Below, piece by piece: positions 1 to 55,868 of a DNA stretch of 58,117 nt. The translations under genes and the position numbers were made by a program. The first letter of the stretch is position 1, and the number at the start of each line of letters is the position of its first letter. The stretch comes from Ahrensia sp. GTDB lineage: Bacteria; Pseudomonadota; Alphaproteobacteria; Rhizobiales; Rhizobiaceae. Location of the stretch: the NCBI GenBank assembly GCA_002706335.1, contig PAKZ01000034.1, positions 1 to 58,117 of the forward strand, read 5' to 3'. Below the pieces are notes generated by a model. The model was not told where the DNA came from. It saw nothing but the letters and a program-made list of their open reading frames with translations, and did not search any database.

Positions 1-220
1 CCAACTAGCTAATCCAACGCGGGCTCATCCATCTCCGATAAATCTTTCCCCCGAAGGGCGTATACGGTATTAATTCCAGTTTCCCGGAGCTATTCCGTAG
101 GGATGGGTAGATTCCCACGCGTTACTCACCCGTCTGCCGCTCACCCGAAGGTGCGCTCGACTTGCATGTGTTAAGCCTGCCGCCAGCGTTCGTCCTGAGC
201 CAGGATCAAACTCTCAAGTT
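1..220 (-). rRNA. rrs: 16S ribosomal RNA, 5' end (partial)
   Basis: Read on the minus strand, the sequence opens with AACTTGAGAGTTTGATCCTG and continues with the universal GGCTCAGGACGAACGCTGGC segment, the start of bacterial 16S rRNA. Only about the first 220 nt are present; the rest lies off the left edge. The short V1 helix around CACCTTCGGGTG and the V2 text are of alphaproteobacterial, rhizobial type. The gene runs leftward from the promoter at 571-600. Confidence 0.97.
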
Positions 221-423
221 GAGAGAAGATCGAACGGCTCGTCGTTATTGGTCACGCTTGAATTGACGAGAACATCTGTACACCCGTTGTTTTCACAACG
301 GATAAGGTTCTCTATCAGAAACGTGTAACGACACCATTTGTATCTTTGCGATCTCATCCACCTTGCGGCTTCGAGATCTGCAGGACACCGCCGTCCACGT
401 TTCTCTTTCTTACCTATTCACTT

Positions 424-14730: not shown

Positions 14731-14815
14731 GCCCCTGTGGCGGAATTGGTAGACGCGCTCGACTCAAAATCGAGTTCCGCAAGGAGTGCTGGTTCGATCC
14801 CGGCCAGGGGCACCA
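14731..14815 (+). tRNA. tRNA-Leu (CAA)
   Basis: An 85-nt class II tRNA with acceptor stem GCCCCTG/CAGGGGC and encoded CCA end. The D-arm region GGCGGAATTGGTAGACGCGC is typical of leucine tRNAs. The anticodon stem CTCGA/TCGAG encloses loop CTCAAAA (anticodon CAA), and GGTTCGATCC forms the T arm. An AT-rich hairpin, AAAATC-TTC-GATTTT (14815-14829), starts at the last base and may help 3'-end formation. Confidence 0.97.
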
Positions 14816-14888: not shown

Positions 14889-15794
14889 CTAGAACGTTTC
14901 GACCGCCCGCAGATGCTCGGCGAAATCCGGCGTAGCCATCAGCGCCTTGCAGCGCCCGAAGCGCCCGTCGGCATAGGCGCGGAAATCCTCCGCCGGATTG
15001 TTGTTGGCGAGCTGGATTAAGCCCCAAAGCGTCCACAAGAGGTCGCACATGGCCTTGTAGATCACCATGCGGCCGCGATCCTGCGGCGTCGCCTCGCCGC
15101 CGAAATAGGCGACGAGCATCTCTTCATCCTGGGCCGACGAGAAGCCGCCTTCGACGGACAGATCGCCGAGATCCCACATCGGATCGTTCATGCCGGAATA
15201 TTCCCAGTCGACGATCCACATGCGCCCGTCCGCATCGAGGAAGTTCTCGCACAGCGGATCACAATGGCAGGCGGCGAGCGGCACGGGATTGACGGCAAGC
15301 GCCTTGCGCACCGCCTCCGCTTCGCGCACCACATCGTGATAGCCGTCGGGCAGCGCCACGTCCTTTGTCGACAGGATGCCGAGATACTCGTCGATCATCG
15401 AAAACAGTTCGAAGCGGAACGGAAACACGGCCCCGGACAGATGCAGGCGGCGGAACGCCTCGCCCGCCCGCGCTGGCGCGCCGTCCCGGCGGGCGAAATT
15501 GTCCGGTGTCATCGTCACGCTGCCCTCGATGTAGCGCGTCACCATAACGCCGGTCGCCGGATCGAAATGCAAAAGCTCGGGGCTGACACCGGCCTTTGCG
15601 GTCTCCTTCGTGGCGACCGCCTCGTTGGCGCGGTCGATATATTCCTCTGTGCCCTTGCCGGGAATGCGCAGGCAGTAGTCGCCGACGCGGAAGACGAGAT
15701 TGGTCAGGCCGCCGAGCCGCCGCGGCTCTCCCGCATCTGCGAGAAGCGGGATCCCCGCAATGGCCTGTCTTGCCTCGTCCATCCCGTCCGTCAT
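14889..15794 (-). CDS. Choline-kinase-like phosphotransferase (second kinase of the cluster)
   Basis: A 301-residue aminoglycoside-phosphotransferase/choline-kinase-fold enzyme expected to transfer phosphate from ATP to a hydroxyl. The Brenner motif CHCDPLCENFL supplies the catalytic Asp and Asn. IVDWEYSGMNDPMWDLGDLS supplies the metal-binding Asp and matches the choline/ethanolamine kinase version of this loop. The N-terminal segment GGLTNLVFRVGDYCLRIPGK is the nucleotide-binding hairpin. Its ATG overlaps the upstream oxidoreductase stop by 4 bp (ATGA), so translation is probably coupled. It ends the seven-gene operon. The substrate is unknown; a choline-like amino alcohol is inferred. Confidence 0.87.
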   Translation of the reverse strand: MTDGMDEARQAIAGIPLLADAGEPRRLGGLTNLVFRVGDYCLRIPGKGTEEYIDRANEAVATKETAKAGVSPELLHFDPATGVMVTRYIEGSVTMTPDNFARRDGAPARAGEAFRRLHLSGAVFPFRFELFSMIDEYLGILSTKDVALPDGYHDVVREAEAVRKALAVNPVPLAACHCDPLCENFLDADGRMWIVDWEYSGMNDPMWDLGDLSVEGGFSSAQDEEMLVAYFGGEATPQDRGRMVIYKAMCDLLWTLWGLIQLANNNPAEDFRAYADGRFGRCKALMATPDFAEHLRAVETF

Positions 15795-18211
15795 GCCTTC
15801 AGCCTTTCCATTTTCGCATCATAGAGACAGCGCGGCCCCCGAACGGCATCATATGCCGTGCCGAAGGCCTCGATCGCAAATCCCTCCCGCCCGGCCAGTT
15901 CCACCGGCAGATAACCGAAACCGATTGTCCGGCCGAGGTGATGGCCGTAGCCGGCGCTCGTCAGAGAGCCAACGGGTTCGTCGTCGAGAAGCACCGTTTC
16001 GCCGCCCAGGAACGGCGCGAAGCCGTCCACCGTCAGCGTCACCAGCTTGCGTTGCGGCCCCGCCGCCTTCGCTTCGGCGAGCGCCTCGCGGCCGATGAAA
16101 TCGCCCTTGTCCAGCGCGACCGCGAAGCCGAGCCCGGCCTCGTAAGGCGTCGTTTCAGGCGTCACATCCGCCGACCAGTAGAGATAGCCCTTTTCCAGCC
16201 TGCAGCTTTCGATGGCGCGGTAACCGACGTCGGCGATGCCGTGCGGCGCGCCGGCCTCTTTCAGCGCCTCGTAGACATGAACCGCATAGTCCTGCGGCAC
16301 GTAAAGCTCCCAGCCGAGTTCGCCGACATAGCCGACGCGCACCGCCAGCGCGGTCGCCAATCCGATTTCGATCTCCTTTGCCGCCAGGAACGGGAAGCCT
16401 GCATTCGACAGATCGGCGGGGGTCAGCGTCTGCAGCACGTCGCGCGCCTTCGGCCCGCAGACATTGATCACGGCGAGACTGTTGGTCGCCTCGCGCATCG
16501 TCACGCCGTCGGGCAGATGTCGCCGCACCCAGGCGGAATCGCGCACGCCGAAGCCCGATCCCGTTACCAGCAGGAACCGTTCCGGCCCGGCATGGATCAG
16601 CGTCACATCCGCCTCGACGCCGCCCTTCTCGTTGCAGAGCTGCGTGTAAATCGCACGGCCCGGCTCGCCGGAGAGGTCGCCCGCGGCGATCCGGTTCAGC
16701 GCGGCGCGGGCGCCCTGCCCGGTGATCTCGAATTTCGAGAACGACGTCTGGTCGATAAGCGCCACACGCTCGCGGATGGCCCGGGCTTCCTCTCCGACCG
16801 CGTAGAACCATCCCGGCTTGCCTTCGAAGCTCGGCGTCTCGTCTGACGTCGTGCCGTCAAGCGCGAACCAGTTCGGGCGCTCCCATCCGAATTTCGAGCC
16901 GAACCGCGCGCCGTTCGCCTTCAGCGCCTCGTGCAGCGGCGAACGCCGCAATCCGCGCCCGGCATGGCTTTCCTCGCCGGGCCAGTGGATCTTGTAATAG
17001 GACCCATAGGCCTCGATGGCGCGCTCCTGCAGAAAGTTGGCCTGCGCATGCGGCGCGCCGAAACGGCGTATGTCGAAGGGCCACAGATCGAGCCCCGGAT
17101 CGCCATGCATGATCCAGTTCGCCATCGCGTCGCCCGCACCGCCCGAAGCGGCGATGCCGGCTGTGAAGCCGCAGGCGACGTAGAAATTGTCGAGTTCCGG
17201 CGCGAGCCCCATGATCGGCTCGCCATCGGCCGAAACGGGGATCGGCCCGTTGATCACCGTGCGGATGCCGATTTCGTTGAGCACAGGCAGCCGCTCGGCC
17301 GCCGGCAGCGCGAAGAGTTCGAGGCGATCCATGTTGGCCGGGAACAATTGCCGGCCGAAATCGAACGGCGCGCGCTGGCCCCAGCAGCCCTCCGTACCAT
17401 CCTCCCATCCGCCGATGGCAAACGCGCCGCCGACATCGGGCTTCAGGTAGAAATTCTTGTCCGGATCGCGCAGCGTCGGCAAATCGTCGCCGTATTCGAG
17501 GCCCTTTTCGGTGACGAAATACTGGTGCTCGACGACGCCGGCGGCCAGCGCCACGCCGGCCATCTCGCCGATGCGCTTCGCCCACAGGCCGGCGCAATTG
17601 ACCAGCACGTCGCAGCCGATCGTGCCGTGATCCGTGACGACGCCGACCGCACGGCGGTTCTCGATCACGATATCCTCGACGCAGACGCCTTCCTCGATTT
17701 TCGCCCCGTTCTGGCGCGCCGCATAGGCGAAAGCCTGGGTGACAGCATAGGGATCGATATAGCCGTCGGACGGGATAAAGGCCGCGCCGACCACCCCGTC
17801 GGGATCGATATAGGGAAACCTGTCGCGCGCCTCCTGCGGCGTCAGCATATGCGCCTCGAAGCCGAAGCTCTTCGCCAGTTGCATCGAGCGACGGATCTCG
17901 CTCCAGCGCGCCTCACTCGATGCCAGCCGCAGCGACCCAACCTTCTTCCAGTCGGTCGCCTGCCCGGTTTCGCCGGCCAGCCGGTCGAACACCGCAACCG
18001 AGTTCTGCATCAGCCTGGTCAGGGATTTCTTGCCGCGCAGCTGGCCGACGAGGCCGGCCGCATGCCAGGTGCATCCATGGGTGATCTGCGCCTTTTCCAG
18101 GACAAGCACGTCCTTTTCCCCGGCGCGGGCCAGATGATAGGCGAGCGAACAGCCGATGGCGCCCGCTCCGATGATGACGATGCGCGCATGGCGGTCAGCG
18201 GCAAAAGACAT
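15791..18211 (-). CDS. FAD-dependent oxidoreductase-GcvT fusion, DMGDH/sarcosine dehydrogenase-like (copy 2)
   Basis: An 806-residue enzyme. Residues about 9-370 form a D-amino-acid-oxidase-type FAD domain with IVIIGAGAIGCSLAYHLARA. His50 in CTWHAAGLVGQL aligns with the histidine that carries covalent FAD in dimethylglycine dehydrogenase. A short linker domain follows, then GcvT (about 430-700) and a GcvT C-terminal barrel, which in relatives transfers the released one-carbon unit to tetrahydrofolate. The expected reaction is oxidative N-demethylation with electrons going to ETF. It is a tandem paralogue of the gene at 18215-20656, 3 bp upstream, and overlaps the following kinase by 4 bp. The specific substrate is not deducible. 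Confidence 0.9.
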   Translation of the reverse strand: MSFAADRHARIVIIGAGAIGCSLAYHLARAGEKDVLVLEKAQITHGCTWHAAGLVGQLRGKKSLTRLMQNSVAVFDRLAGETGQATDWKKVGSLRLASSEARWSEIRRSMQLAKSFGFEAHMLTPQEARDRFPYIDPDGVVGAAFIPSDGYIDPYAVTQAFAYAARQNGAKIEEGVCVEDIVIENRRAVGVVTDHGTIGCDVLVNCAGLWAKRIGEMAGVALAAGVVEHQYFVTEKGLEYGDDLPTLRDPDKNFYLKPDVGGAFAIGGWEDGTEGCWGQRAPFDFGRQLFPANMDRLELFALPAAERLPVLNEIGIRTVINGPIPVSADGEPIMGLAPELDNFYVACGFTAGIAASGGAGDAMANWIMHGDPGLDLWPFDIRRFGAPHAQANFLQERAIEAYGSYYKIHWPGEESHAGRGLRRSPLHEALKANGARFGSKFGWERPNWFALDGTTSDETPSFEGKPGWFYAVGEEARAIRERVALIDQTSFSKFEITGQGARAALNRIAAGDLSGEPGRAIYTQLCNEKGGVEADVTLIHAGPERFLLVTGSGFGVRDSAWVRRHLPDGVTMREATNSLAVINVCGPKARDVLQTLTPADLSNAGFPFLAAKEIEIGLATALAVRVGYVGELGWELYVPQDYAVHVYEALKEAGAPHGIADVGYRAIESCRLEKGYLYWSADVTPETTPYEAGLGFAVALDKGDFIGREALAEAKAAGPQRKLVTLTVDGFAPFLGGETVLLDDEPVGSLTSAGYGHHLGRTIGFGYLPVELAGREGFAIEAFGTAYDAVRGPRCLYDAKMERLKA

Positions 18212-18214
18212 GGT

Positions 18215-20656
18215 TCAGGCTTTCACGCGGGAATTGGAGGGGTCGAAGAAGGGGTCCATGCCGATCTTCGCCGGGATGCGCTCATTGGCGACAACGAGTT
18301 CGTAGGAGCCCGACATCAGGAAGTCGTCGCTGACGCCGTCGGCATGGCGCACATAGCCGTAGCCGACGCTCTTGCCGATCGTGTAACCATAGCCGCCCGA
18401 GGTCAGGTAGCCGACGGTGTCGCCGTCGCGCAGGATCGTCTCGCGCCCGACGAGGACGGCGTCCGGATCGTCCAGGGTGAAGCCGGCGAGCCGTTTCGTC
18501 AGCGGCATGCCCACCTTGCCCTCCAGCGCTTTGCGGCCCATGAAGTCGGTGTTCTTTTTCAGCTTGACCGCCCATCCGAGCCCCGCCTCGAACGGCGTGT
18601 CGTTCGGCGTGATGTCGGACGACCAGGCACGGTATCCCTTTTCGAGCCGCAGGCTCTCCAGCGCCCGGTAGCCGATCGGGCGAATATCCTCCGCCTTGCC
18701 GGCCTCCATCAGCGCGTCGAAGATCTCGCCCGTCGCGCCGATCGGCACATGCAGTTCCCAGCCAAGCTCGCCGACATAGGTGACGCGCAGCGCCCGAACG
18801 ACATGCCCGGCGATCTCGATCTCCCGGACATGGCCGAACGGGAACGCCCCGTCGGAGACATCGGCCGAAGTGACCTTCGCCAGCACGTCGCGGGCCTTCG
18901 GGCCCATAAGCGACAACGTGCCCCAGTCCTCGGTGATGTCGGTCAGCGTGGCATCCGCACCGTCCGGAATATGGTCGGCGATCCAGGCGAGATCGTGCGT
19001 GCGGTATCCCGTGCCGGTGACGATGTAGAAGCGATCCTCGGCGATGCGCGCCACGGTGAGGTCGGCCTCGATACCGCCGCGCGAATTGAGCAACTGGGTA
19101 TAAGTCAGTCGTCCGACTGGCTTCGACACATTGTTCGCGCAGATCCAGTCGAGCGCCTTCAGCGCATCCGCGCCGGCCAGTTCGTATTTGGCGAAGGAGG
19201 ACTGGTCGAAGATGCCGACTTTCTCGCGCACATGGGCATGCTCTTCGCCAACCGGGGCAAACCAGTTCTGCCGGCCCATCGAATAGACGTCCTGCGCCTC
19301 CATGCCCTCGGGCGCGACCCAGTTCGGCCGCTCCCAGCCGAGCTTGGAGCCGAACACGGCGCGATGCGCCTTCAGGCGCTCATAGAGCGGCGACACGATA
19401 CGCGGCCGTCCGCTTTCGTATTCCTCGTGCGGAAAACCGATCGTGTAATGCTTGCCATAGGCTTCCAGCGTCCGGTCGCAAACCCATTGCCGGTCGCGAT
19501 GCAGGCCCGAGAAACGCCGAATGTCGACGACCCAGAGATCGAGCGGCGCCTCACCCGAGATCGTCCATTCGGCCAGCACCCATCCGGCGCCGCCGCCTGA
19601 CGCGATGCCGAAGGCGTTGAAGCCCGCGCCGACAAACATGTTCGAACATTCCGGCGCCGTGCCGAGGATAAAATTGCCATCCGGCGTAAAGCTCTCCGGG
19701 CCGTTGATCATCTGCTTGACCCCGGCTTCGGCAAGCGCCGGAATGCGGGCCATCGCCTGCTCCATATGCTGTTCGAAATGGTCGAAATCGTCGTCGAACA
19801 GGCGAAACTCCCAATCGTTCGGCACGTCGCCGGTCGTCCAGGGCTGCGGGTTGGGCTCGTAGCCGCCCATGACGAGGCCGCCGACCTCTTCCTTGAAATA
19901 GGTCCGCCGGTCGGGATCGCGGATCGTCGGCGCATCGGAGGCGAGACCGGCGATCGGTTCGGTGATGATATACTGGTGCTTGACCGGCTGCAGCGGCACA
20001 TTGATGCCGGCCATCTCGCCGACCTGCCGCGCCCACTGGCCGGCGCAGTTGACCACCTTCTCGCAGGCGATATCGCCCTTGTCGGTCTTTACTTTCGTGA
20101 TCCGGTCTCCGTCCATCTCGAAGCCGGTGACGCGCACCTGTTCGTGGATCTTCGCGCCGTGCATGCGCGCGCCCTTGGCGAGCGACTGGGTGATGTCGGA
20201 GGGGCTCGCCTGCCCGTCGGTCGGCAGCCAGCTCGCGCCGACAAGATCGGACGTGTCCATCAGCGGCCACATCGCCTTCACCTCGTCGGGCGACAGGAGA
20301 TGCATCTCCATGCCGAAGGACCGCGCCGTGGTGGCGAGGCGGCGATATTCGGTCCAGCGGTCTTCGTTCGTCGCGAGCCGCAGGCAGCCGCTCATCTTCC
20401 AGCCGGTCTCCAGCCCGGTTTCCTGATCGAGCCGCTTGTAAAGGTCGACCGAATATTTGAGCACCCGCGTGATCGAAGCCGACGAGCGCAGCTGACCGAC
20501 GAGGCCGGCGGCGTGCCAGGTCGAGCCGGAGGTCAACTGCCCCATTTCAAGCAGTACCACGTCCGCCTTGTGATCCTTCGCCAGGTGATAGGCCGTCGAG
20601 CATCCGATGATGCCGCCGCCGATGACGACGATCTCGGCCTGTTGGGGAAGCGTCAT
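18215..20656 (-). CDS. FAD-dependent oxidoreductase-GcvT fusion, DMGDH/sarcosine dehydrogenase-like (copy 1)
   Basis: An 813-residue enzyme with the same architecture as copy 2. The Rossmann motif VVIGGGIIGCSTAYHLAK is near residue 10. His48 in GSTWHAAGLVGQL is the presumed covalent-FAD site. VVNCAGQWARQVGEMAG, the central linker, and the GcvT and GcvT-C domains follow. GRLTYTQLLNSRGGIEADLT and YVGELGWELHVP mark the folate-binding half. ATG 20656 overlaps the kinase stop upstream by 4 bp. An earlier in-frame start at 20812 would run into that kinase and is unconserved. The copy presumably acts on a different methylation state from copy 2, which is inference from the duplication. Confidence 0.9.
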   Translation of the reverse strand: MTLPQQAEIVVIGGGIIGCSTAYHLAKDHKADVVLLEMGQLTSGSTWHAAGLVGQLRSSASITRVLKYSVDLYKRLDQETGLETGWKMSGCLRLATNEDRWTEYRRLATTARSFGMEMHLLSPDEVKAMWPLMDTSDLVGASWLPTDGQASPSDITQSLAKGARMHGAKIHEQVRVTGFEMDGDRITKVKTDKGDIACEKVVNCAGQWARQVGEMAGINVPLQPVKHQYIITEPIAGLASDAPTIRDPDRRTYFKEEVGGLVMGGYEPNPQPWTTGDVPNDWEFRLFDDDFDHFEQHMEQAMARIPALAEAGVKQMINGPESFTPDGNFILGTAPECSNMFVGAGFNAFGIASGGGAGWVLAEWTISGEAPLDLWVVDIRRFSGLHRDRQWVCDRTLEAYGKHYTIGFPHEEYESGRPRIVSPLYERLKAHRAVFGSKLGWERPNWVAPEGMEAQDVYSMGRQNWFAPVGEEHAHVREKVGIFDQSSFAKYELAGADALKALDWICANNVSKPVGRLTYTQLLNSRGGIEADLTVARIAEDRFYIVTGTGYRTHDLAWIADHIPDGADATLTDITEDWGTLSLMGPKARDVLAKVTSADVSDGAFPFGHVREIEIAGHVVRALRVTYVGELGWELHVPIGATGEIFDALMEAGKAEDIRPIGYRALESLRLEKGYRAWSSDITPNDTPFEAGLGWAVKLKKNTDFMGRKALEGKVGMPLTKRLAGFTLDDPDAVLVGRETILRDGDTVGYLTSGGYGYTIGKSVGYGYVRHADGVSDDFLMSGSYELVVANERIPAKIGMDPFFDPSNSRVKA

Positions 20657-21540
20657 GATGAAGTCTTTCCGTGTTTGGAGTGATAGCGGTCGAGCGCGGC
20701 GGCGAGCCGCGCGAGGTTTTCCTGCGTATAGGCGGCGTAATCGACGCCCGGCGCATCCAGGTGCAGCTCCGAGACCATCGACCACATCGCCTCGCGCAGC
20801 AGCGAGGCGCATTGCATGGCGTCGAAGGACCGGGTCATCGCCTCGTCGGAGGCACGGCCGAAATAGGTCGAAAGCAGCCGCTCGGCCGTTTCGTCGTCCA
20901 TACCCGAATTGGAGGCCGCGCCGGCCAGATCGAACATCGCCGTGTTGAAACCGGCATATTCGAAGTCGATCAGCCAGAGCCGCTCGCCGTCATCGAGAAA
21001 ATTACCGGGAAGGAGATCGTTGTGCCCGAAGACGATCGGCAACGGCGCCTGCGCCGCTTCCAGCGCCTCGGCCAGCGCGAGGTAATGCGGCAGTTCCCCC
21101 GCGTGCGCGCTGCCGCCTGATTTCAGCGTGCGCGCATAGTCCCGGATCACATGGAATACCCAGAACATGAATCCCGGCCCGGAAACCGCTGCCGGCATCC
21201 TGTGATGGAAATCATGCAGAAGCCCGGCGATCCGCTCCGGCTGCGCCCGCATGTCCTCTTCCGTCCAGGTCCGAGCCTCGATGAAGGCGGAGACCATCAC
21301 GCCCGGTTCCGAATACTCAACCTTCGGCGCGAAACCGGCCTCATGCGCCGCGCGCGCCACCGCAATCTCGCGCTCGCGGACAACGTGGTGGAACAGATAA
21401 TCCTTGCCGAAGCGCACGACATGCCTGCCGCCGGCGTCGGTCACCAGCCAGCTCTCGTTCGACAGCCCGCCGGTCAGCGGCTCCATGGCGACGCTACCCG
21501 TCCAGCAGGGCAAGGCGGCGATCTTCTCCATGCCGTTCAT
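20653..21540 (-). CDS. Choline-kinase-like phosphotransferase (first kinase of the cluster)
   Basis: A 295-residue kinase of the aminoglycoside phosphotransferase/choline kinase fold. PLTGGLSNESWLVTDAGGRH is the glycine-rich nucleotide loop. FGHNDLLPGNFLDDG holds the catalytic Asp and Asn, and LWLIDFEYAGFNTAMFDLAG holds the metal-binding Asp. It shares this plan with the kinase at 14889-15794 but differs clearly in sequence, so the two are diverged paralogues. Its ATG overlaps the permease stop by 4 bp and its stop overlaps the next ATG by 4 bp, suggesting tight translational coupling. With the importer it suggests that the substrate is phosphorylated soon after entry. Confidence 0.87.
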   Translation of the reverse strand: MNGMEKIAALPCWTGSVAMEPLTGGLSNESWLVTDAGGRHVVRFGKDYLFHHVVREREIAVARAAHEAGFAPKVEYSEPGVMVSAFIEARTWTEEDMRAQPERIAGLLHDFHHRMPAAVSGPGFMFWVFHVIRDYARTLKSGGSAHAGELPHYLALAEALEAAQAPLPIVFGHNDLLPGNFLDDGERLWLIDFEYAGFNTAMFDLAGAASNSGMDDETAERLLSTYFGRASDEAMTRSFDAMQCASLLREAMWSMVSELHLDAPGVDYAAYTQENLARLAAALDRYHSKHGKTSS

Positions 21541-23558
21541 TGGCCCTCCTCCGAAAGACCGAGCCGGCTGCGCGCCCGCGCCGCTCCGGCAGAAATCAGC
21601 CGGTCGGAGATGATCGCGATAAAGGCGACGGCAAGGCCTGCGACGAGGCCGCGGCCCGGATCGGCCTTGGTCAGTGCGATATAGACCTCCTGGCCGAGGT
21701 CTCGCGTGCCCACGAGCGCCGTAATGACCAGCATCGACAGGGCGAACATGATCGTCTGGTTCAGTCCCAGCATGATCTCCGGCAGGGCCAGCTTCAGCTT
21801 GATGCGCGTCAGGATCTGCCATTCCGTGCAGCCCATCGCCTTGCCTGCCTCGATCAGCCGCGGATCGACCCGCCGGATGCCGAGCACCGTGTAGCGGATA
21901 GCCGGCACGATGGAATAGGCGACGACCGCGATCATCGCCGTGAAGTCGCCGACCCTGAACAGCATCACCGCCGGCATCAGATAGACGAAGGAGGGCAGCG
22001 TCTGCAGCGTATCGATGGCCGCCTGCACAACGCGCCACAACCGTTCCTTCTCGGCCGCGAGAATGCCGATGGGCGTGCCGAGCAGCGTCGCGAAAAGCAC
22101 CGAGATGCCGCAGAGATAGGTCGTGATCATCGCCTTTTCCCACTGGCCGGTGGCGGCGACCAGAAAGGACAGCGCCGCGACCAGCAAAGCGAGGCCGGGA
22201 CCGCGCAGCACCCAGCCGGCCGCCGCCAGGACCGCCACGACTCCGATCCAGGGAAAACCGAGCAGCAACCGCTTGAACGGGATCAGCACGTTCAGAAGCA
22301 GCGTGTTCTTGATCGCCTCCAGCGTGTCGAAGAAGTTGACGTTGATCCACTCGACCACGCGCGACATGAAGGTGCCCGTCGATATCGTCAGCGCGTCCGG
22401 ATAGGTCTGGACGGCCGGAACAAAAAGGCCGGCGACGCCCGCAATGACCACGAAGACGAGCGCCGCCAGCAGATAGGGATGGTTCGCGACGAAGCCGCGC
22501 GGCTCATGCACCAGCGGCCTGGCCTGCCGGTTCGCAAAGGCCTGGCTCAACCGGTCGAGCGCGATCGCCAGCGCCACGATGGCGAAACCCGCCTCCAGCC
22601 CGGCGCCGAAATCGAGCCGTCTCAGCGCCGCGAGGACATCGAAGCCGAGCCCGCCCGCGCCGATCATCGAGGCGATGATGACCATGTTCAGCGACAGCAT
22701 GATCACCTGGTTCATGCCAACCAGGAGACTTTCCTTCGCGGACGGCACCAGCACGCGCCAGGTCATCTGGCGCTGCGAACAGCCGATCATCTGGCCGAGA
22801 TCCTTGACCTCCGGCGGCACCCGGCGCAGCGCCAGTATCGTCACGCGGGTCATCGGCGGCATCGCGTAGATCAGCGTCGCCACGACGGCGGCGATCGCGC
22901 CGAAGCCGAACATGAACAGGATCGGCACCAGATAGGCAAAGACCGGGATCGTCTGCATCAGGTCGAGCACCGGTATCAGCGCACGTTCGAGCCAGCGCCA
23001 GCGATAGGCGCCGATGCCGAGCAGAAGCCCGCCGACGACGCCGATGGGCACGGCGACGAGGATCGAGGCGAGCGTCACCATCGCGCTCGTCCATTGGCCG
23101 AACACCGCGATGAAGATGAAACAGAGCGAAACGACCAGAGCCAGCCGCCGTCCGCCGGCATAGAGCCCCATCAATGCGACCACGACGATGACAGCGATCC
23201 AGGGAAGCGGCGGCACGATCTGTATCGCGCCCGATCCCTGTCCGGAGAGATACCCGGTCGACAGCAGGCTCAGCACCACCTGGTAGGGCACGTTGACGAC
23301 CGCCGAGATGAAGCGGGTCAGATCCGTGAAGGTGAAGAGCCCGAAAGAGGCGTCGTTCAGCAGCCACTTGGTGAATATGTTGATCCACTTCGCGACCGGA
23401 ACTTCCATTTTCCGGGGATAATCGAAGGCCCATTCGGCGATGGGCTCGCCATATTGCCAGAAGAGAACGAACAGGATGGCCGCCGCGCCCATGATCCACG
23501 CGCCGGTTCGCCGCGGCTTCGCGGCGCCCATGGGCTGGATGGAGGCGACGTCCGTCAT
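21537..23558 (-). CDS. Betaine/proline-type ABC transporter permease, two fused ProW-like halves
   Basis: A 673-residue integral membrane protein, about twice the length of a usual ProW. Each half has its own set of helices and a coupling (EAA) loop: EVKDLGQMIGCSQRQMTWRV in the first half and RLIEAGKAMGCTEWQILTRI in the second. Each loop follows a matching TIPVFAYLVP or TLPSFVYLMP segment. The protein is therefore an internal duplication that can form both transmembrane subunits of the importer. The halves have diverged well beyond recent duplication. It lies 1 bp after the ATPase stop and overlaps the first kinase by 4 bp. Confidence 0.93.
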   Translation of the reverse strand: MTDVASIQPMGAAKPRRTGAWIMGAAAILFVLFWQYGEPIAEWAFDYPRKMEVPVAKWINIFTKWLLNDASFGLFTFTDLTRFISAVVNVPYQVVLSLLSTGYLSGQGSGAIQIVPPLPWIAVIVVVALMGLYAGGRRLALVVSLCFIFIAVFGQWTSAMVTLASILVAVPIGVVGGLLLGIGAYRWRWLERALIPVLDLMQTIPVFAYLVPILFMFGFGAIAAVVATLIYAMPPMTRVTILALRRVPPEVKDLGQMIGCSQRQMTWRVLVPSAKESLLVGMNQVIMLSLNMVIIASMIGAGGLGFDVLAALRRLDFGAGLEAGFAIVALAIALDRLSQAFANRQARPLVHEPRGFVANHPYLLAALVFVVIAGVAGLFVPAVQTYPDALTISTGTFMSRVVEWINVNFFDTLEAIKNTLLLNVLIPFKRLLLGFPWIGVVAVLAAAGWVLRGPGLALLVAALSFLVAATGQWEKAMITTYLCGISVLFATLLGTPIGILAAEKERLWRVVQAAIDTLQTLPSFVYLMPAVMLFRVGDFTAMIAVVAYSIVPAIRYTVLGIRRVDPRLIEAGKAMGCTEWQILTRIKLKLALPEIMLGLNQTIMFALSMLVITALVGTRDLGQEVYIALTKADPGRGLVAGLAVAFIAIISDRLISAGAARARSRLGLSEEGQ

Positions 23559-23559
23559 C

Positions 23560-24579
23560 TCAGCCTCCGAGCATCATGGTGACGACGTCCGAGCGGTCGA
23601 TCACGCCGACCGTCTCGTCATCCGTTCCGGTCACCCGCAGCCTTTCGGCGCCCGCGAGGAACAGCGGCGCCGCCTCGGAAATGGTCGCATTTGCCGAAAC
23701 GGCGGCCTGCGGCGCATCGCCTTCAAGCGGCTTCATCACCGAGCGCACGCGCACCACCTTGGCGCGCGGCACGGCGCGGGTGAATTCCTGAACATAATCG
23801 GTGGCGGGATGGAGGACGATTTCCTCCGGCGTACCGGCCTGCACGACTTCGCCGTCCTTCATGATGGCGATCTTGTCGGCGAGCCGGATCGCCTCGTCGA
23901 AATCATGCGTGATGAAGACGATGGTCTTCTTCAGCACCGATTGCAGGCGAATGAACTCGTCCTGCATCTCGCGGCGGATAAGCGGATCGAGTGCGGAAAA
24001 CGGCTCGTCGAGGAACCAGAGCTCCGGTTCGACGGCAAGCGACCGGGCGATGCCGACGCGCTGCTGCTGGCCGCCGGAGAGTTGCCTCGGATAGGCTTCC
24101 TCGCGGCCTGTCAGACCGACCAGCGCAATCATCTTGCGGGCGCGTTCCTCGCGCTCTGCCCGGCCCATCCCCTGCACTTCGAGCGGGAAAGCGACGTTCG
24201 ACAGCACCGTCATGTGCGGAAGCAGGGCGAAGTGCTGGAACACCATGCCCATCTTGTGGCGGCGGATCTCGATCATCCGCGAATCGCTCGCCGTCAGCAG
24301 GTTCTCGCCGTGAAACAGGATTTCGCCGGCCGTCGGCTCGATCAGCCGCGACAGGCAGCGCACCAAGGTCGACTTGCCGGAGCCCGAAAGGCCCATGATG
24401 ACGAAGATTTCGCCCTCGCCGACCGTGATGTCGACAGCGCGCGCGGCAGCGACGAGGCCGGCGGACTGGATATCTTCAAGAGACGGGTTGCCGCCATGTC
24501 GGGTCAGGAACTCCTGGGCTCCGTGCCCGAACAGTTTCCAGATATTTCGGCAGACGAGTTTGGCTTCCGGCGGCGCCAT
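23560..24579 (-). CDS. Glycine betaine/proline-type ABC transporter ATP-binding protein
   Basis: ProV/OpuAA-like ATPase of 339 residues. The nucleotide-binding domain is complete: Walker A GLSGSGKST, Q-loop region MGMVFQHFALLPH, signature LSGGQQQR, Walker B LWFLDEPFSALDP and H-loop FITHDFDEA. The C-terminal 80 residues, with TISEAAPLFLAGAERLRVTG and VGVIDRSDVVTMML, look like a reduced CBS region, the osmosensory or regulatory part in OpuA-type transporters. It sits 87 bp after the binding-protein gene, across a strong hairpin, and 1 bp before the permease. Confidence 0.94.
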   Translation of the reverse strand: MAPPEAKLVCRNIWKLFGHGAQEFLTRHGGNPSLEDIQSAGLVAAARAVDITVGEGEIFVIMGLSGSGKSTLVRCLSRLIEPTAGEILFHGENLLTASDSRMIEIRRHKMGMVFQHFALLPHMTVLSNVAFPLEVQGMGRAEREERARKMIALVGLTGREEAYPRQLSGGQQQRVGIARSLAVEPELWFLDEPFSALDPLIRREMQDEFIRLQSVLKKTIVFITHDFDEAIRLADKIAIMKDGEVVQAGTPEEIVLHPATDYVQEFTRAVPRAKVVRVRSVMKPLEGDAPQAAVSANATISEAAPLFLAGAERLRVTGTDDETVGVIDRSDVVTMMLGG

Positions 24580-24611
24580 TGATGCCTCGGCAGATGGGGA
24601 ATTCGTGAAGT

Positions 24612-24647
24612 CGGAGCCGCCGTCCGGGAGGTTGGGCGGCGGCTCCG
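24612..24647 (-). promoter_or_regulatory. intra-operon hairpin between binding-protein and ATPase genes
   Basis: CGGAGCCGCCGTCC (24612-24625) pairs with GGGCGGCGGCTCCG (24634-24647) as a 14-bp stem with one G-T wobble and an 8-nt loop. No T tract follows on the minus strand. Such a hairpin after a binding-protein gene typically protects the upstream mRNA, giving excess binding protein over the membrane subunits. Confidence 0.7.
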
Positions 24648-24666
24648 GGCTGTTGGCGGATGCGGC

Positions 24667-25641
24667 TTACTTGCCGATCCAGCCCATCCAGCGGTCCTGG
24701 TTGGCGTCCATCCACTCGGCGGTCCCCTCCTCGACGGTCTTGCCGTCGAGATCGACCTCGGTGATCATCGCGCCCATCTCGTCATTGTTGATGGTGAACG
24801 CCTTGATCGCCTCGTAGGCGCCCGGCCACTTGTCCTTCACGCCGGCCCAGCCGACCTTCCAGATCTCGCCGAACGGCTTGCCGCAATCATAAGCCATATC
24901 CGGATTGGAGCCCCAGGACGGATCGCCGTAGCACTCGGGCGTATATTCGGGGAATTCGACCCACTCGCCCTTGTATTTCGCCGGCGCCCAATGCGGCGCG
25001 TAGATCCACAGCATGATCGGGGCCTTGCGCTGATAGGCGCTTTCCAGTTCGGCGAACAGCGCCGCGTCGGTTCCGGCATGGATCACCTCGAAAGGCAGGT
25101 CCAGCGCCTCGACACGCTCGTCGTCAAAGCCGCCCCAGGTCACCGGCCCGCCGAGATAACGGCCCTTCGGCGCGGTTTCCGCGGTCGAGAAGGCCTCGGC
25201 GCAAGCCTCGTCCTTCAGCGCTTCCCAGTTCGGAAGACCGGGGCACTTCTCTTTCATGTATTCGGGATACCACCACTCTTCCTTGGCCTTCATGCCGGTC
25301 GGACCGAAATTCTCGACCTTGCCGGTGGCGGTCGCCGCATCCATCGCCTCGCGGCCGGTCGTTTCCCACATTTCCATCGCGACATCGAGGTCGCCCGTCT
25401 CGAGCCCGGCGAACTGCGCCAGGTAGTCGGCCTGGACATATTCGACATTGTAGCCGGCCTTCTGCAGCACCTCGCCCATGATCTGGGTGGTGATCAACTG
25501 GCCGGTCCAGTCGTGCAATGTCAGCTTGATGGGATCGGTGGATTCCTGCGCCGTCGCGGAAAACGACCCCGCCATCATCGCGATGGCCGACACCGCGAAA
25601 CTCGCGGCGATGGCCCTTTTCCTGAATTCGAATGCTGTCAT
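24667..25641 (-). CDS. Glycine betaine-type ABC transporter substrate-binding protein
   Basis: Periplasmic OpuAC/ProX-type ligand-binding protein of 324 residues. The signal peptide runs from KRAIAASFAVSAIAMMAG to a predicted cleavage after SATAQ. The mature protein is rich in Trp and Tyr (KEEWWYPEYMKEKCPG, MLWIYAPHWAPAKYKGEWVE), as expected for an aromatic cage binding a quaternary ammonium group. Three cysteines lie in EKCPG, DEACAE and PECYG. ATG 25641 is chosen for AGGGAGC 5-6 bp upstream. It is first in the seven-gene operon, with its promoter at 25737-25766. The actual ligand is unknown. Confidence 0.92.
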   Translation of the reverse strand: MTAFEFRKRAIAASFAVSAIAMMAGSFSATAQESTDPIKLTLHDWTGQLITTQIMGEVLQKAGYNVEYVQADYLAQFAGLETGDLDVAMEMWETTGREAMDAATATGKVENFGPTGMKAKEEWWYPEYMKEKCPGLPNWEALKDEACAEAFSTAETAPKGRYLGGPVTWGGFDDERVEALDLPFEVIHAGTDAALFAELESAYQRKAPIMLWIYAPHWAPAKYKGEWVEFPEYTPECYGDPSWGSNPDMAYDCGKPFGEIWKVGWAGVKDKWPGAYEAIKAFTINNDEMGAMITEVDLDGKTVEEGTAEWMDANQDRWMGWIGK

Positions 25642-25736
25642 GTCGCGCTCCCTGTGCACTGTTCGGGACCCGTGATGATCGCAATCGCCTGACCTGCTTG
25701 GGTCGTCTGTTGCCTTGCACCCCGGTCCTGACCGAA

Positions 25737-25766
25737 ATTAACGCGTGAGAAGCCACTGCCTGTCAA
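25737..25766 (-). promoter_or_regulatory. promoter of the importer/oxidoreductase operon
   Basis: On the minus strand a perfect TTGACA (25761-25766) is followed after 18 bp by GTTAAT (25737-25742), about 95 bp before the binding-protein ATG. The operator-like repeats at 25773-25828 begin 7 bp upstream of the -35. Confidence 0.6.
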
Positions 25767-25772
25767 TGAAGT

Positions 25773-25828
25773 TTTGTGGCTTTTTGTGATTATCATGCCC
25801 GAATTTGTGGATTTGATTGCAAATTCGG
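25773..25828. promoter_or_regulatory. putative DeoR-family operator region
   Basis: A perfect inverted repeat, CCGAATTTG (25799-25807) and CAAATTCGG (25820-25828), has a 12-bp spacer, so arm centres are 21 bp apart. TTTGTGG, TTTGTGA and TTTGTGG start at 25773, 25783 and 25804, spaced 10 and 21 bp, on one helical face. The region lies between the divergent deoR-type gene and the importer operon and is the AT-rich centre of the spacer. Binding by the adjacent regulator is inferred. Confidence 0.6.
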
Positions 25829-25870
25829 CAGACAACGCCTAACGAATAAGCATCAATTGGAGCAATCCTC

Positions 25871-26650
25871 ATGCTCTCCAAGCGCCACGCAGAGATCCTG
25901 AAGATCCTCAACGAGGAGGGAAGCGTCACAATCGCGGCGCTCGCTGCCCGGCTTGGCGTGTCGCTGGAAACCGTGCGGCGCGACGTGCGGCCGCTGACGG
26001 AAAACGGCAGCGTGCTCAAGGTGCACGGCGCGGTCGGCCTTGCCGGCCAGATCGGCGAGGCGCCATTCCAGCGCCGCATGCGCGAAAACGCCAGCGCCAA
26101 GCAGCGTATCGCCAGACATCTCGCCGAAACGATCCGCAATGGCGATTCCGTCATGCTAGACACCGGCACGACGACGAGCTTCGTCGCCCGCGAACTGACG
26201 GCGCTCCGCCGCCTCACCGTCGTGACCAATTCATCCGATGTCGCCCGCACCCTGGCGACCGTCAACGGCAACCGCGTCTACATGGCCGGCGGCGAGTTGC
26301 GCAGCGATTCCGGCGCCGCCTTCGGCGCGTCGGCGGTCGACTTCATCCGCCGCTTCACCGTCACGCATGCGGTCATCTCGACCGGCGCGGTCGGCGAACA
26401 CGGCGTCATGGATTTCGATCTGGAGGAAGCGGAGTTTGCCCGCATGGTGCTCTCCTGCGGCGAGCGGAAGGTCGTCGTCACCGACCGCACCAAGTTCGGC
26501 CGTCGCGGCCTCGTCAATGTCTGCGGGTTCGACTCCATCGACGAACTGATCACCGACGCGCCACCGCCCGACGAAATCGCCGCCGCGCTTGAGCGTGACG
26601 GGACGACGCTGACGATCGCCCGGGACCAGTCCCGCTCATCCCCGGCTTGA
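25871..26650 (+). CDS. DeoR/GlpR family transcriptional regulator
   Basis: A 259-residue regulator, usually a repressor. The N-terminal winged helix includes RHAEILKILNEEGSVTIAAL and LGVSLETVRRDVRPLTENG, with the family's RRD signature. The C-terminal DeoRC domain, an isomerase-like ligand fold, shows MLDTGTTTSFVARELT, YMAGGELR and VVTDRTKFGRRG. DeoR-type proteins normally sense phosphorylated intermediates. That fits the two kinases of the divergent operon, so it probably controls both directions through the repeats at 25773-25828. GGAG ends about 9 bp before ATG 25871. The acyl-CoA ligase gene follows 19 bp downstream. Confidence 0.92.
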   Translation: MLSKRHAEILKILNEEGSVTIAALAARLGVSLETVRRDVRPLTENGSVLKVHGAVGLAGQIGEAPFQRRMRENASAKQRIARHLAETIRNGDSVMLDTGTTTSFVARELTALRRLTVVTNSSDVARTLATVNGNRVYMAGGELRSDSGAAFGASAVDFIRRFTVTHAVISTGAVGEHGVMDFDLEEAEFARMVLSCGERKVVVTDRTKFGRRGLVNVCGFDSIDELITDAPPPDEIAAALERDGTTLTIARDQSRSSPA

Positions 26651-26669
26651 CTGGCTTCGGGAACAATGC

Positions 26670-28298
26670 ATGAGCTTTTTCATGCTGCCTGCCGATCCCG
26701 TTTCCTATGACGATCTCGTGTCCCGCTTTCGCTGGGACATCCCCGAACGCTTCAATATCGGCGTCGCCTGCGCCGACAGGCACGCGCCTGAGAAGCCGGC
26801 CATCATCGACTGGTCGGGCAATCGACCGGTCACGCTGAGCTTCGGCGAACTGTCGGAAAAGTCGAACCGCTTCGCGGCGGCGCTCGCCGCCCTCGGCGTA
26901 CGGCGCGGCGACCGGGTGGCGATCCTGCTGCCGCAATGTTTCGAGACGCCGATCGCCCATCTGGCGATCTACAAGCTCGGCGCCATCGCCGTGCCCATGG
27001 CCATGCAGTTCGGCCCGGACGCGATCGCCTATCGGCTGAACCTGTCCGGCGCGGCCGCCATCGTCCTCGATCAAAGCGGCCTCGCGAAACTGGCGGCCTC
27101 GCAGGAGGATTTCCCCGCATTGAAGGAGCGGATTTCCATTGACGGCGGCGCGGATGCACGCGACTTCGATGCGCTTGTCGCCGGCGGCGCGGCGGATTTC
27201 GAACCCGCCGATACCGGTCCCGACGACCCGGCCCTGATGATCTTCACTTCCGGTACAACCGGCCAGCCCAAGGGCGCGCTGCACGCCCATCGCGTCCTGC
27301 TCGGCCACCTGCCCGGCGTCGAGACCCATCATGAATTCCTGCCGCAGCCGGGCGACCTGCTGTGGACGCCGGCGGACTGGGCCTGGGCCGGCGGCCTGCT
27401 CAACGTCCTGCTGCCCGGCCTCTATCACGGCATTCCTGTCATCGCGGCCCGCGCCCCGCGCTTCAGCGCCGAATGGGCGCTCTCGCTCATGGAAAAGGCC
27501 GGCGTGCGCAACGCATTCCTGCCGCCGACCGCGCTGCGCATGCTGGCGACACTGGGGCCACGCGCACGCGATTTCGACCTGAAGCTGCGCACGCTCGGTT
27601 CCGGAGGCGAGGCGCTCGGCCGCGAGACGCTCGCCTGGTGCCGCGACAATCTCGGCCTGACGGTCAACGAGTTCTACGGACAGACGGAATGCAACCTCGT
27701 CCTCGCGGCCTGCGCCGCGCTCGATGTCGTCCGTCCCGGCTCGATGGGCAAACCGGTCGCCGGCCACCGCGTCGCGGTCATCGACGACAACGGCAACGAA
27801 CTTCCGCCCGGCGAGCAGGGCCAGGTCGCAATCCGCCACCCCGACCCGGTGATGTTCCTGGAATACTGGGGCAATCCGGACGCGACCAAAGCGAAATTCA
27901 TCGGCGACTGGATGACCACCGGCGATCAGGGCATGCGCGACGAGGATGGCTATTTCTTCTTCGTCGGACGCGACGACGACGTCATATCGTCGGCCGGCTA
28001 CCGGATTGGCCCGGGCGAGATCGAGGACTGCCTCGTCAGCCATCCGGACGTCGCGCTGGCCGCCGTGATCGGCAAGCCAGACCCGATCCGCGGCCAGCTG
28101 GTAAAAGCCTATCTGGTGCTCAACGAGGGCATCACACCGTCCGAGGAGCTGAAGGAGGCCATCGGATCCTTCGTGAAGCAGCGCCTGTCTGCGCATGAAT
28201 ATCCGCGCGAGATCGAATTCGTCGACGAAATGCCGCTGACCACGACAGGCAAGGTCATCCGCCGGATCTTCAGGGAAAAAGCCGAGGCCGAAGCCTAG
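26670..28298 (+). CDS. AMP-forming acyl-CoA synthetase (acetyl-/medium-chain acyl-CoA ligase-like)
   Basis: A 542-residue member of the ANL superfamily, making acyl-CoA through an acyl-adenylate. Motif A3 is IFTSGTTGQPKGALHAH, the adenylate-binding motif is EFYGQTECN, A7 is WMTTGDQGM, and the hinge/A8 region is YFFFVGRDDDVISSAGYRIG. The catalytic lysine is in MPLTTTGKVIRR near the C-terminus. It most resembles acetyl-CoA synthetase-like MACS enzymes. Co-transcription with the regulator suggests it activates a carboxylate produced by, or fed into, the divergent operon. The acid itself cannot be named. Confidence 0.92.
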   Translation: MSFFMLPADPVSYDDLVSRFRWDIPERFNIGVACADRHAPEKPAIIDWSGNRPVTLSFGELSEKSNRFAAALAALGVRRGDRVAILLPQCFETPIAHLAIYKLGAIAVPMAMQFGPDAIAYRLNLSGAAAIVLDQSGLAKLAASQEDFPALKERISIDGGADARDFDALVAGGAADFEPADTGPDDPALMIFTSGTTGQPKGALHAHRVLLGHLPGVETHHEFLPQPGDLLWTPADWAWAGGLLNVLLPGLYHGIPVIAARAPRFSAEWALSLMEKAGVRNAFLPPTALRMLATLGPRARDFDLKLRTLGSGGEALGRETLAWCRDNLGLTVNEFYGQTECNLVLAACAALDVVRPGSMGKPVAGHRVAVIDDNGNELPPGEQGQVAIRHPDPVMFLEYWGNPDATKAKFIGDWMTTGDQGMRDEDGYFFFVGRDDDVISSAGYRIGPGEIEDCLVSHPDVALAAVIGKPDPIRGQLVKAYLVLNEGITPSEELKEAIGSFVKQRLSAHEYPREIEFVDEMPLTTTGKVIRRIFREKAEAEA

Positions 28299-55737: not shown

Positions 55738-55787
55738 GCGCAGCCCAAAGCATTGACCGCATGCCCTTTCAGGCATATCTATCGCCC

Positions 55788-55839
55788 CGTGGTGATTTGG
55801 CCGGCCGGCTTGCAGCCACGTAAAAAAACTCGCTAAAGG
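55788..55839 (+). ncRNA. SAM-II riboswitch (metA RNA)
   Basis: The near-invariant SAM-II elements appear in order: CGTGGTGATTTG, GGCCGGCCGGCTTGCAGCCACG, a run of seven A residues and GCTAAAG (55832-55838). CGTGG pairs with CCACG, and the downstream A-rich strand plus GCTAAAG forms the pseudoknot binding S-adenosylmethionine. It lies 80 bp before metA in the expected orientation. High SAM should lower metA expression. Confidence 0.96.
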
Positions 55840-55868
55840 GCCGAGACGAAATTTTGAAAAACGTCCCG

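What the first reader, a model, noticed from the sequence alone, without database searches (positions are those of the whole stretch)
14889..28298. Candidate undescribed pathway: betaine-type importer plus kinase-oxidoreductase-oxidoreductase-kinase, with DeoR control
Seven coupled genes import a ligand through a betaine-type ABC system and encode two choline-kinase-like phosphotransferases flanking two DMGDH-like FAD-GcvT enzymes. A DeoR regulator and an acyl-CoA ligase are divergent. Ordinary betaine degradation needs no kinase, and DeoR proteins usually sense phosphorylated compounds. This suggests uptake, phosphorylation, stepwise N-demethylation to methylene-tetrahydrofolate, and CoA activation of the remaining acid. 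I know of no characterised pathway with this exact set.
Basis: partly seen in the sequence, partly recalled or inferred. Interest (0 to 1): 0.75.

Follow-up and report, generated by a model that had tools for sequence, protein, structure and literature searches.

The report
Kinase-primed demethylation of methylated ethanolamines
A conserved set of bacterial genes appears to take up small methylated amino-alcohols, add a phosphate to them, and strip off their methyl groups for use as carbon and nitrogen; this would be a route that I did not find described.

Summary
Seven tightly packed genes (14889-25641, minus strand) encode a betaine-type ABC importer and K2-Ox2-Ox1-K1; a DeoR gene is divergent. 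The acyl-CoA ligase is not part of the system: no homologue at 40% identity or more lies within 9 kb of K2 in 154 related loci.

K2 and an Ox gene are the core, adjacent in 137 of 154 loci (132 of 149 without duplicates), often with DeoR and importer. K1 is an optional module, partnered by Ox1 or by a SAM methyltransferase, never both.

The binding protein resembles the TMAO-binding TmoX; K1 keeps most of the choline site of LicA; both Ox proteins keep the covalent-flavin histidine and His/Tyr dyad of dimethylglycine oxidase. In some genomes neighbours point to ethanolamine or to a temporary phosphate: EutH, a phosphatase or ETF in 20 of 154 loci.

Best reading: N-methylated ethanolamines are imported, phosphorylated, demethylated by flavin and folate while phosphorylated, and released as (phospho)ethanolamine. 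Substrate and order of steps are inferred. I rate it a new variant of dimethylglycine-dehydrogenase-type demethylation.

The parts
24667..25641 (-). Substrate-binding protein of a betaine-type ABC importer (TmoX-like)
   Evidence: Pfam OpuAC; best solved relative 4xz6, E 3e-73, the TMAO-binding protein of Ruegeria pomeroyi (PMC8918994); W45, W92, E121, W169, W212 and Y214 invariant in 20 sequences
23560..24579 (-). ABC importer ATPase
   Evidence: NCBIfam TIGR01186 proV family above cut-off, 349 vs 327 bits
21537..23558 (-). ABC importer permease with two permease halves
   Evidence: BPD_transp_1, two stretches; TIGR03416 choline ABC permease above cut-off, 403 vs 363 bits
20653..21540 (-). 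K2, choline/ethanolamine-kinase-like phosphotransferase (core module)
   Evidence: Pfam APH and Choline_kinase; catalytic His, Asp and Asn invariant in 24 sequences; relative to LicA two amine-site residues changed (read from the alignment)
18215..20656 (-). Ox2, FAD plus GcvT-domain demethylase (core module)
   Evidence: DAO, FAO_M, GCV_T, GCV_T_C; best solved relative human dimethylglycine dehydrogenase; own clade, support 96
15791..18211 (-). Ox1, FAD plus GcvT-domain demethylase (optional module)
   Evidence: same domains; best solved relative human dimethylglycine dehydrogenase; own clade, support 99
14889..15794 (-). K1, choline-kinase-like phosphotransferase (optional module)
   Evidence: close relative of solved 3dxq, E 4e-157; seven of eight choline-site residues of LicA kept (alignment; residues from PMC4364537)
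25871..26650 (+). DeoR/GlpR-family regulator, divergent from the importer
   Evidence: HTH_DeoR and DeoRC; homologue near K2 in 108 of 154 loci
26670..28298 (+). Acyl-CoA ligase; listed because the finding includes it, judged not part of the conserved system
   Evidence: AMP-binding; homologue near K2 in 0 of 154 loci

Best explanation
The locus encodes a catabolic route for N-methylated ethanolamines (monomethyl- and dimethylethanolamine, perhaps also choline). A TmoX-like ABC importer brings the amino-alcohol in. K1 and K2 phosphorylate the hydroxyl group. The phosphate then takes the place of the carboxylate of dimethylglycine, so that Ox1 and Ox2 oxidise an N-methyl group with FAD (electrons to ETF) and pass the one-carbon unit to tetrahydrofolate in their GcvT domain. 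Stepwise demethylation ends at phosphoethanolamine, which a phosphatase turns into ethanolamine for the gamma-glutamyl-ethanolamide pathway. K2-Ox2 is the core and most likely does the last demethylation; K1-Ox1 handles the more methylated substrate. DeoR probably senses a phosphorylated intermediate. Shown here by sequence: gene content, intact catalytic residues, conservation, gene context. Inferred: the substrate, phosphorylation before demethylation, the phosphatase step, and the ligand of DeoR.
For: Binding protein: closest to TmoX, with an invariant aromatic cage and invariant Glu in 20 sequences; in TmoX the matching Glu bonds the oxygen of TMAO (PMC8918994). K1 keeps LicA residues Y197, W251, W254, Y268, E213, T29 and D176; V178 is Leu. 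Both Ox enzymes keep the FAD histidine and the His/Tyr dyad in the 138 Ox2 and 29 Ox1 rows. EutH, above its curated cut-off in the one copy scanned, lies near K2 in 8 of 154 loci (7 of 149), none with K1; in six of those seven it follows Ox2 by 46-64 bp on the same strand, in L138 it is on the other strand. Salipiger abyssi: importer-K2-Ox2-EtfB-EtfA-FolD-PurU, then GS-like, ALDH and Fe-ADH genes, the order described for ethanolamine use in Phaeobacter (PMC10132767). An inositol-monophosphatase-family gene lies near K2 in 9 of 154 loci, next to DeoR in five. Own genome: GS-like gene 67% identical to that of Salipiger, neighbours read by eye as the same operon. That gene occurs in 31 of 36 relatives with K2 and 31 of 65 without, p = 0.0001, not corrected for kinship. 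Arg57 of Ox2 is invariant in both Ox clades but Asn or Ser in five dimethylglycine-dehydrogenase-like paralogues. Precedent: flavoenzymes that oxidise N-methyl-aminoethylphosphonate but not sarcosine (passages of PMC10590968).
Against: No experiment exists. EutH, the phosphatase or EtfB occur in only 20 of 154 loci. The GS-like, FolD and PurU genes lie near K2 in 1 of 154 loci, Salipiger itself, the source of the queries; Fe-ADH in 2 and ALDH in 2 weakly. The Salipiger GS-like and Fe-ADH proteins are below every curated cut-off listed, so their ethanolamine role rests on gene order. The best phosphatase match in the window's genome is 36% identical and unlinked. In L195 a choline dehydrogenase gene above its cut-off lies just upstream of the binding protein, and in L194 and L196 a BHMT-like gene is divergent from K2 (L194 scanned, below cut-off); both would also suit choline or betaine use. 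K1 is partnered by a methyltransferase instead of Ox1 in 44 of 67 non-identical K1 loci, which this scheme does not explain. In L043 and L060 K2 is missing from the operon and lies elsewhere in the genome.
Confidence: 0.5

Rival explanations
1. Ox1 and Ox2 are ordinary dimethylglycine or sarcosine dehydrogenases of the betaine route, and the kinases are a side branch making phosphocholine or phosphoethanolamine.
For: Best solved relatives are dimethylglycine dehydrogenases. BetA upstream in L195 and BHMT-like genes beside K2 in L194 and L196.
Against: The window's genome has a separate dimethylglycine-dehydrogenase-like gene and genes that look like sarcosine oxidase by eye, and all three 1.4 Mb genomes searched keep a second such dehydrogenase-like gene besides Ox2. 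Ox1 and Ox2 form clades apart from these in a quick tree with some long branches. K2 and an Ox gene travel as a pair (137 of 154 loci).
Confidence: 0.16
2. The substrate is choline: K1 makes phosphocholine and the first methyl is removed from the quaternary amine by Ox1 or by the methyltransferase that replaces it.
For: K1 keeps seven of eight LicA choline-site residues. Ox1 and the methyltransferase never co-occur with K1 (0 of 67 loci). BetA lies beside the importer in L195.
Against: Flavin amine oxidation needs a lone pair on nitrogen, which a quaternary amine lacks (general chemistry); EutH loci suggest less methylated substrates.
Confidence: 0.14
3. The order is reversed: the free methylated ethanolamine is demethylated first and K2 then phosphorylates ethanolamine, for lipid synthesis or for a phospho-lyase.
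For: K2 is of the choline/ethanolamine kinase family, and two amine-site residues differ from LicA (alignment).
Against: A phosphatase gene linked in 9 of 154 loci would make a final phosphorylation futile there; Arg57 is specific to the Ox clades.
Confidence: 0.1
4. The kinases act on an N-oxide such as TMAO, as GntI does in guanitoxin biosynthesis.
For: GntI is the best NCBIfam match of both kinases; the binding protein is TmoX-like.
Against: GntI scores are far below cut-off, 151 and 131 against 357 bits; it explains neither EutH nor the phosphatase.
Confidence: 0.03

Closest known systems
Dimethylglycine dehydrogenase / dimethylglycine oxidase
   Same: Domain order, FAD histidine, His/Tyr dyad, folate domain
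   Different: Separate clades; invariant Arg where five paralogues have Asn or Ser; a kinase gene beside it in 137 of 154 loci
TmoXWV TMAO importer
   Same: Closest solved binding protein; W55, W102, E131 and W177 kept
   Different: Phe106 becomes Gly, Phe220 becomes Trp, Trp222 becomes Tyr
LicA choline kinase (Streptococcus pneumoniae)
   Same: K1 keeps seven of eight choline-site residues
   Different: K2 has Val and Asn in place of W254 and E213 (alignment); gene context differs
PbfB/PbfC/PbfD oxidases of N-methyl-aminoethylphosphonate
   Same: Flavin oxidation of a methylated amine that carries a phosphorus acid group (passages of PMC10590968)
   Different: They release methylamine; the text mentions neither GcvT, tetrahydrofolate nor a kinase
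EtoX / gamma-glutamyl-ethanolamide ethanolamine pathway (Phaeobacter MED193)
   Same: Same gene order beside K2-Ox2 in Salipiger, and by eye elsewhere in the window's genome
   Different: Handles ethanolamine itself; no demethylation step

Membership tests
Dimethylglycine dehydrogenase | FAD histidine, His/Tyr dyad and folate domain | tested here: met
Dimethylglycine dehydrogenase | Groups with the genome's own dimethylglycine-dehydrogenase-like genes | tested here: not met
   Ox1 and Ox2 are separate clades, support 99 and 96; quick tree of 86 chosen from 173 rows, some long branches
Dimethylglycine dehydrogenase | Oxidises dimethylglycine | not testable with these tools
   needs enzyme assay
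LicA-type choline kinase | Choline-site residues (K1) | tested here: met
   seven of eight kept, V178 is Leu; read from the alignment with the list
LicA-type choline kinase | Choline-site residues (K2) | tested here: not met
   W254 and E213 replaced by Val and Asn, T29 by Ser, V178 by Leu; read from the alignment
TmoX TMAO-binding protein | TMAO pocket W55, W102, F106, E131, W177, F220, W222 | tested here: not met
   four of seven identical (W55, W102, E131, W177); F106, F220 and W222 changed
ChoXWV choline importer | NCBIfam models for all three parts | tested here: not met
   permease 403 vs 363 bits above cut-off; ATPase 307 vs 484 and binding protein 38 vs 379 below
GntI N-oxide kinase | NF041256 above cut-off | tested here: not met
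   151 and 131 vs 357 bits
TMAO demethylase Tdm | NF053776 above cut-off | tested here: not met
   184 and 168 vs 1100 bits

The most novel reading that the evidence does not exclude
A phosphate-handle demethylation pathway: an amino-alcohol is phosphorylated only so that a dimethylglycine-dehydrogenase-like flavin/folate enzyme can grip it, is demethylated as a phosphate ester, and is then dephosphorylated to ethanolamine. The route is spread through Alphaproteobacteria, including streamlined 1.4 Mb genomes.
Probability: 0.4. Interest if true: 0.75.

Novelty: new variant of a known kind. Interest (0 to 1): 0.6.

Why it matters
Methylated ethanolamines are head groups of known membrane lipids (general knowledge), yet I found no described bacterial pathway for them in the searches named. 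If right, this gives a function to a kinase found in 42 of 385 sampled alphaproteobacterial genomes, the window's own included (model hits of 264 bits or more, my count of the listing), mostly with a linked flavin/folate enzyme, and a directly testable new enzyme activity, phospho-N-methylethanolamine demethylase. It would also suggest a role for the crystal structure 3dxq, named only as a choline/ethanolamine kinase family protein.

Tried and rejected
CoA activation of a remaining acid: dropped, since the ligase is not conserved. A shared DeoR operator: an inverted repeat is present in the window's intergenic region; of 11 other loci printed, 8 have none at the same settings and 3 (L092, L096, L158) have different ones, so nothing is claimed (102 intergenic stretches were taken, 12 printed). 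Literature: ten searches, of which 15, 48, 52, 65, 66, 92 and 93 sought this pathway; no listed title or abstract start describes it, but searches list 15 of 41 and 15 of 46 papers, and only open-licence PubMed Central papers are held. Papers were seen as passages only: PMC8918994, PMC5082570, PMC10574752, PMC4744692, PMC10132767, PMC4364537, PMC10590968, PMC3141670. Searching the own genome for EutH gave nothing. No structure prediction was run.

Full report
What is there. Nine genes end at the stated coordinates; the starts of Ox2, K2 and the binding protein are my choice among in-frame starts. Pfam and NCBIfam give an OpuAC binding protein, a ProV-type ATPase, a two-half permease, two choline-kinase/APH proteins, two DAO-FAO_M-GCV_T-GCV_T_C proteins, a DeoR regulator and an AMP-binding ligase. 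The seven minus-strand genes overlap by 4 bp or are 1-3 bp apart, save for 87 bp after the binding protein.

Where it occurs. The window is a contig of a 5.1 Mb genome. A same-genus genome, G005, shares its contig length and K2 DNA with Oricola indica JL-62, so the window is probably Oricola. K1 relatives, distant kinases included, occur in 40 of 101 near genomes and K2 in 36 of 101 at a stricter cut. In a class-wide sample 47 of 385 genomes ring, 42 of them at 264 bits or more by my count of the listing, the own genome included.

Core and optional modules. I examined 166 loci; 154 hold K2, 149 with distinct K2 DNA. Ox2 or Ox1 lies within 3.5 kb of K2 in 137 of 154 (132 of 149), on the same strand in 136 of 137. 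DeoR is within 9 kb in 108 of 154, the binding protein in 57 and the acyl-CoA ligase in none. K1 is present in 67 of the 149 distinct loci: with Ox1 in 22, with a SAM methyltransferase in 44, with both in 0, with neither in 1; four further loci have the methyltransferase without K1 in the stretch held. Of the 12 loci without K2, six hold K1: five with Ox1 (L043, L053, L058, L059, L060), one alone (L061). The methyltransferase is divergent from K1 also where the pair is inverted (L162); its nearest solved relative is methyltransferase-like 27. The counts are not corrected for kinship; Mesorhizobium is heavily represented.

Catalytic parts. Both Ox proteins keep the FAD histidine and the dyad that corresponds to His225 and Tyr259 of dimethylglycine oxidase in the 138 Ox2 and 29 Ox1 rows (dyad and its numbers from passages and a cited title in PMC5082570). 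Arg57 of Ox2 is invariant in both clades and Asn or Ser in five dimethylglycine-dehydrogenase-like paralogues; that it binds phosphate is a guess. A quick tree of 86 rows puts Ox1 and Ox2 in separate, well-supported clades; some paralogues have long branches. K1 is close to the solved M. loti protein 3dxq and keeps seven of eight LicA choline-site residues, V178 being Leu. In K2, W254 and E213 are Val and Asn, T29 is Ser and V178 is Leu (alignment).

Importer. The binding protein is nearest to TmoX. Four of the seven TMAO-pocket residues are identical, and F106, F220 and W222 are Gly, Trp and Tyr. An aromatic cage with a Glu suits a methylated amino-alcohol, but does not prove it; I did not test for a carboxylate site.

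Context that names the substrate. EutH, an ethanolamine permease family, above its curated cut-off in the one copy scanned, lies near K2 in 8 of 154 loci (7 of 149), none with K1. In six of the seven it follows Ox2 by 46-64 bp on the same strand, always with DeoR divergent; L070 and L165 are close relatives (860 of 876 K2 bases alike). In L138 it is about 400 bp away on the other strand and Ox2 is split in two reading frames. In Salipiger the genes continue with ETF, FolD, PurU and then GS-like, ALDH and Fe-ADH genes, matching the ethanolamine operon order of Phaeobacter; this GS-like gene is near K2 in that locus only (1 of 154), and its NCBIfam matches are below cut-off. A phosphatase of the inositol-monophosphatase family lies near K2 in 9 of 154 loci: next to DeoR on the same strand in L171, L047, L055, L079 and L168, directly after K1 in L049 (a K1 whose matched stretch holds a stop codon), after Ox2 in L163, and near K1 or K2 in L056 and L178. 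A kinase and a phosphatase in one locus suggest that the phosphate is temporary. ETF genes are near K2 in 4 of 154. In all, 20 of 154 loci have EutH, the phosphatase or EtfB. In L192, K2-Ox2 is followed by TmpA, TmpB, a LysR-like gene on the other strand (by eye), PhnW, PhnA and a phosphonoacetaldehyde dehydrogenase; the five named enzymes are above cut-off. This puts Ox2 among amines carrying a phosphorus acid. The window's own genome holds a GS-like gene 67% identical to that of Salipiger, with neighbours that I read by eye as the same ethanolamine operon. Among 101 relatives this gene occurs in 31 of 36 with K2 and 31 of 65 without (p = 0.0001).

Against. L195 has choline dehydrogenase upstream of the importer, and L194 and L196 have a BHMT-like gene beside K2 (the L194 copy is below cut-off). 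These suit choline or betaine. Yet the same three genomes keep a second dimethylglycine-dehydrogenase-like gene, and the window's genome has true BetA and a separate such gene, so Ox2 is not needed for that. The best phosphatase match in the window's genome is 36% identical and unlinked. The methyltransferase partner of K1 is unexplained.

Comparison. Flavoenzymes that oxidise N-methyl-aminoethylphosphonate but not sarcosine exist (PMC10590968), which makes a phosphate-ester substrate plausible. The difference here is the paired kinase and the folate domain. I found no described pathway in the searches.

Verdict. The finding is real and conserved; the kinase-demethylation idea is probably right in outline, CoA activation is not. 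Confidence in the methylated-ethanolamine route is 0.5.

Noticed in passing
L063, L064, L077, L078: A second kind of locus with kinases distantly related to K1, in three of the four beside an inositol-monophosphatase-family gene in the same stretch; in G015 a homologue of the ethanolamine GS-like gene lies about 4 kb from them.
   Followed up: partly
L192 714-10862: K2-Ox2 sits in one region with TmpA, TmpB, PhnW, PhnA and phosphonoacetaldehyde dehydrogenase genes.
   Followed up: partly
L194, L195, L196: Streamlined 1.4 Mb, low-GC genomes carry K2-Ox2 with ETF genes; the contig length of G130 recalls HIMB59, which is from memory and not tested.
   Followed up: partly
window 14731-14815: tRNA-Leu next to the 3' end of the operon; related genes lie on plasmids in Shinella, Rhizobium, Ruegeria, Nitratireductor, Salipiger and Labrenzia.
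   Followed up: no
window 55779-55856: SAM_alpha riboswitch.
   Followed up: no
window 1-221: The contig starts inside a 16S rRNA gene.
   Followed up: no
L162, L158, L096, L046: A SAM methyltransferase divergent from K1 replaces Ox1; its role is unexplained.
   Followed up: partly
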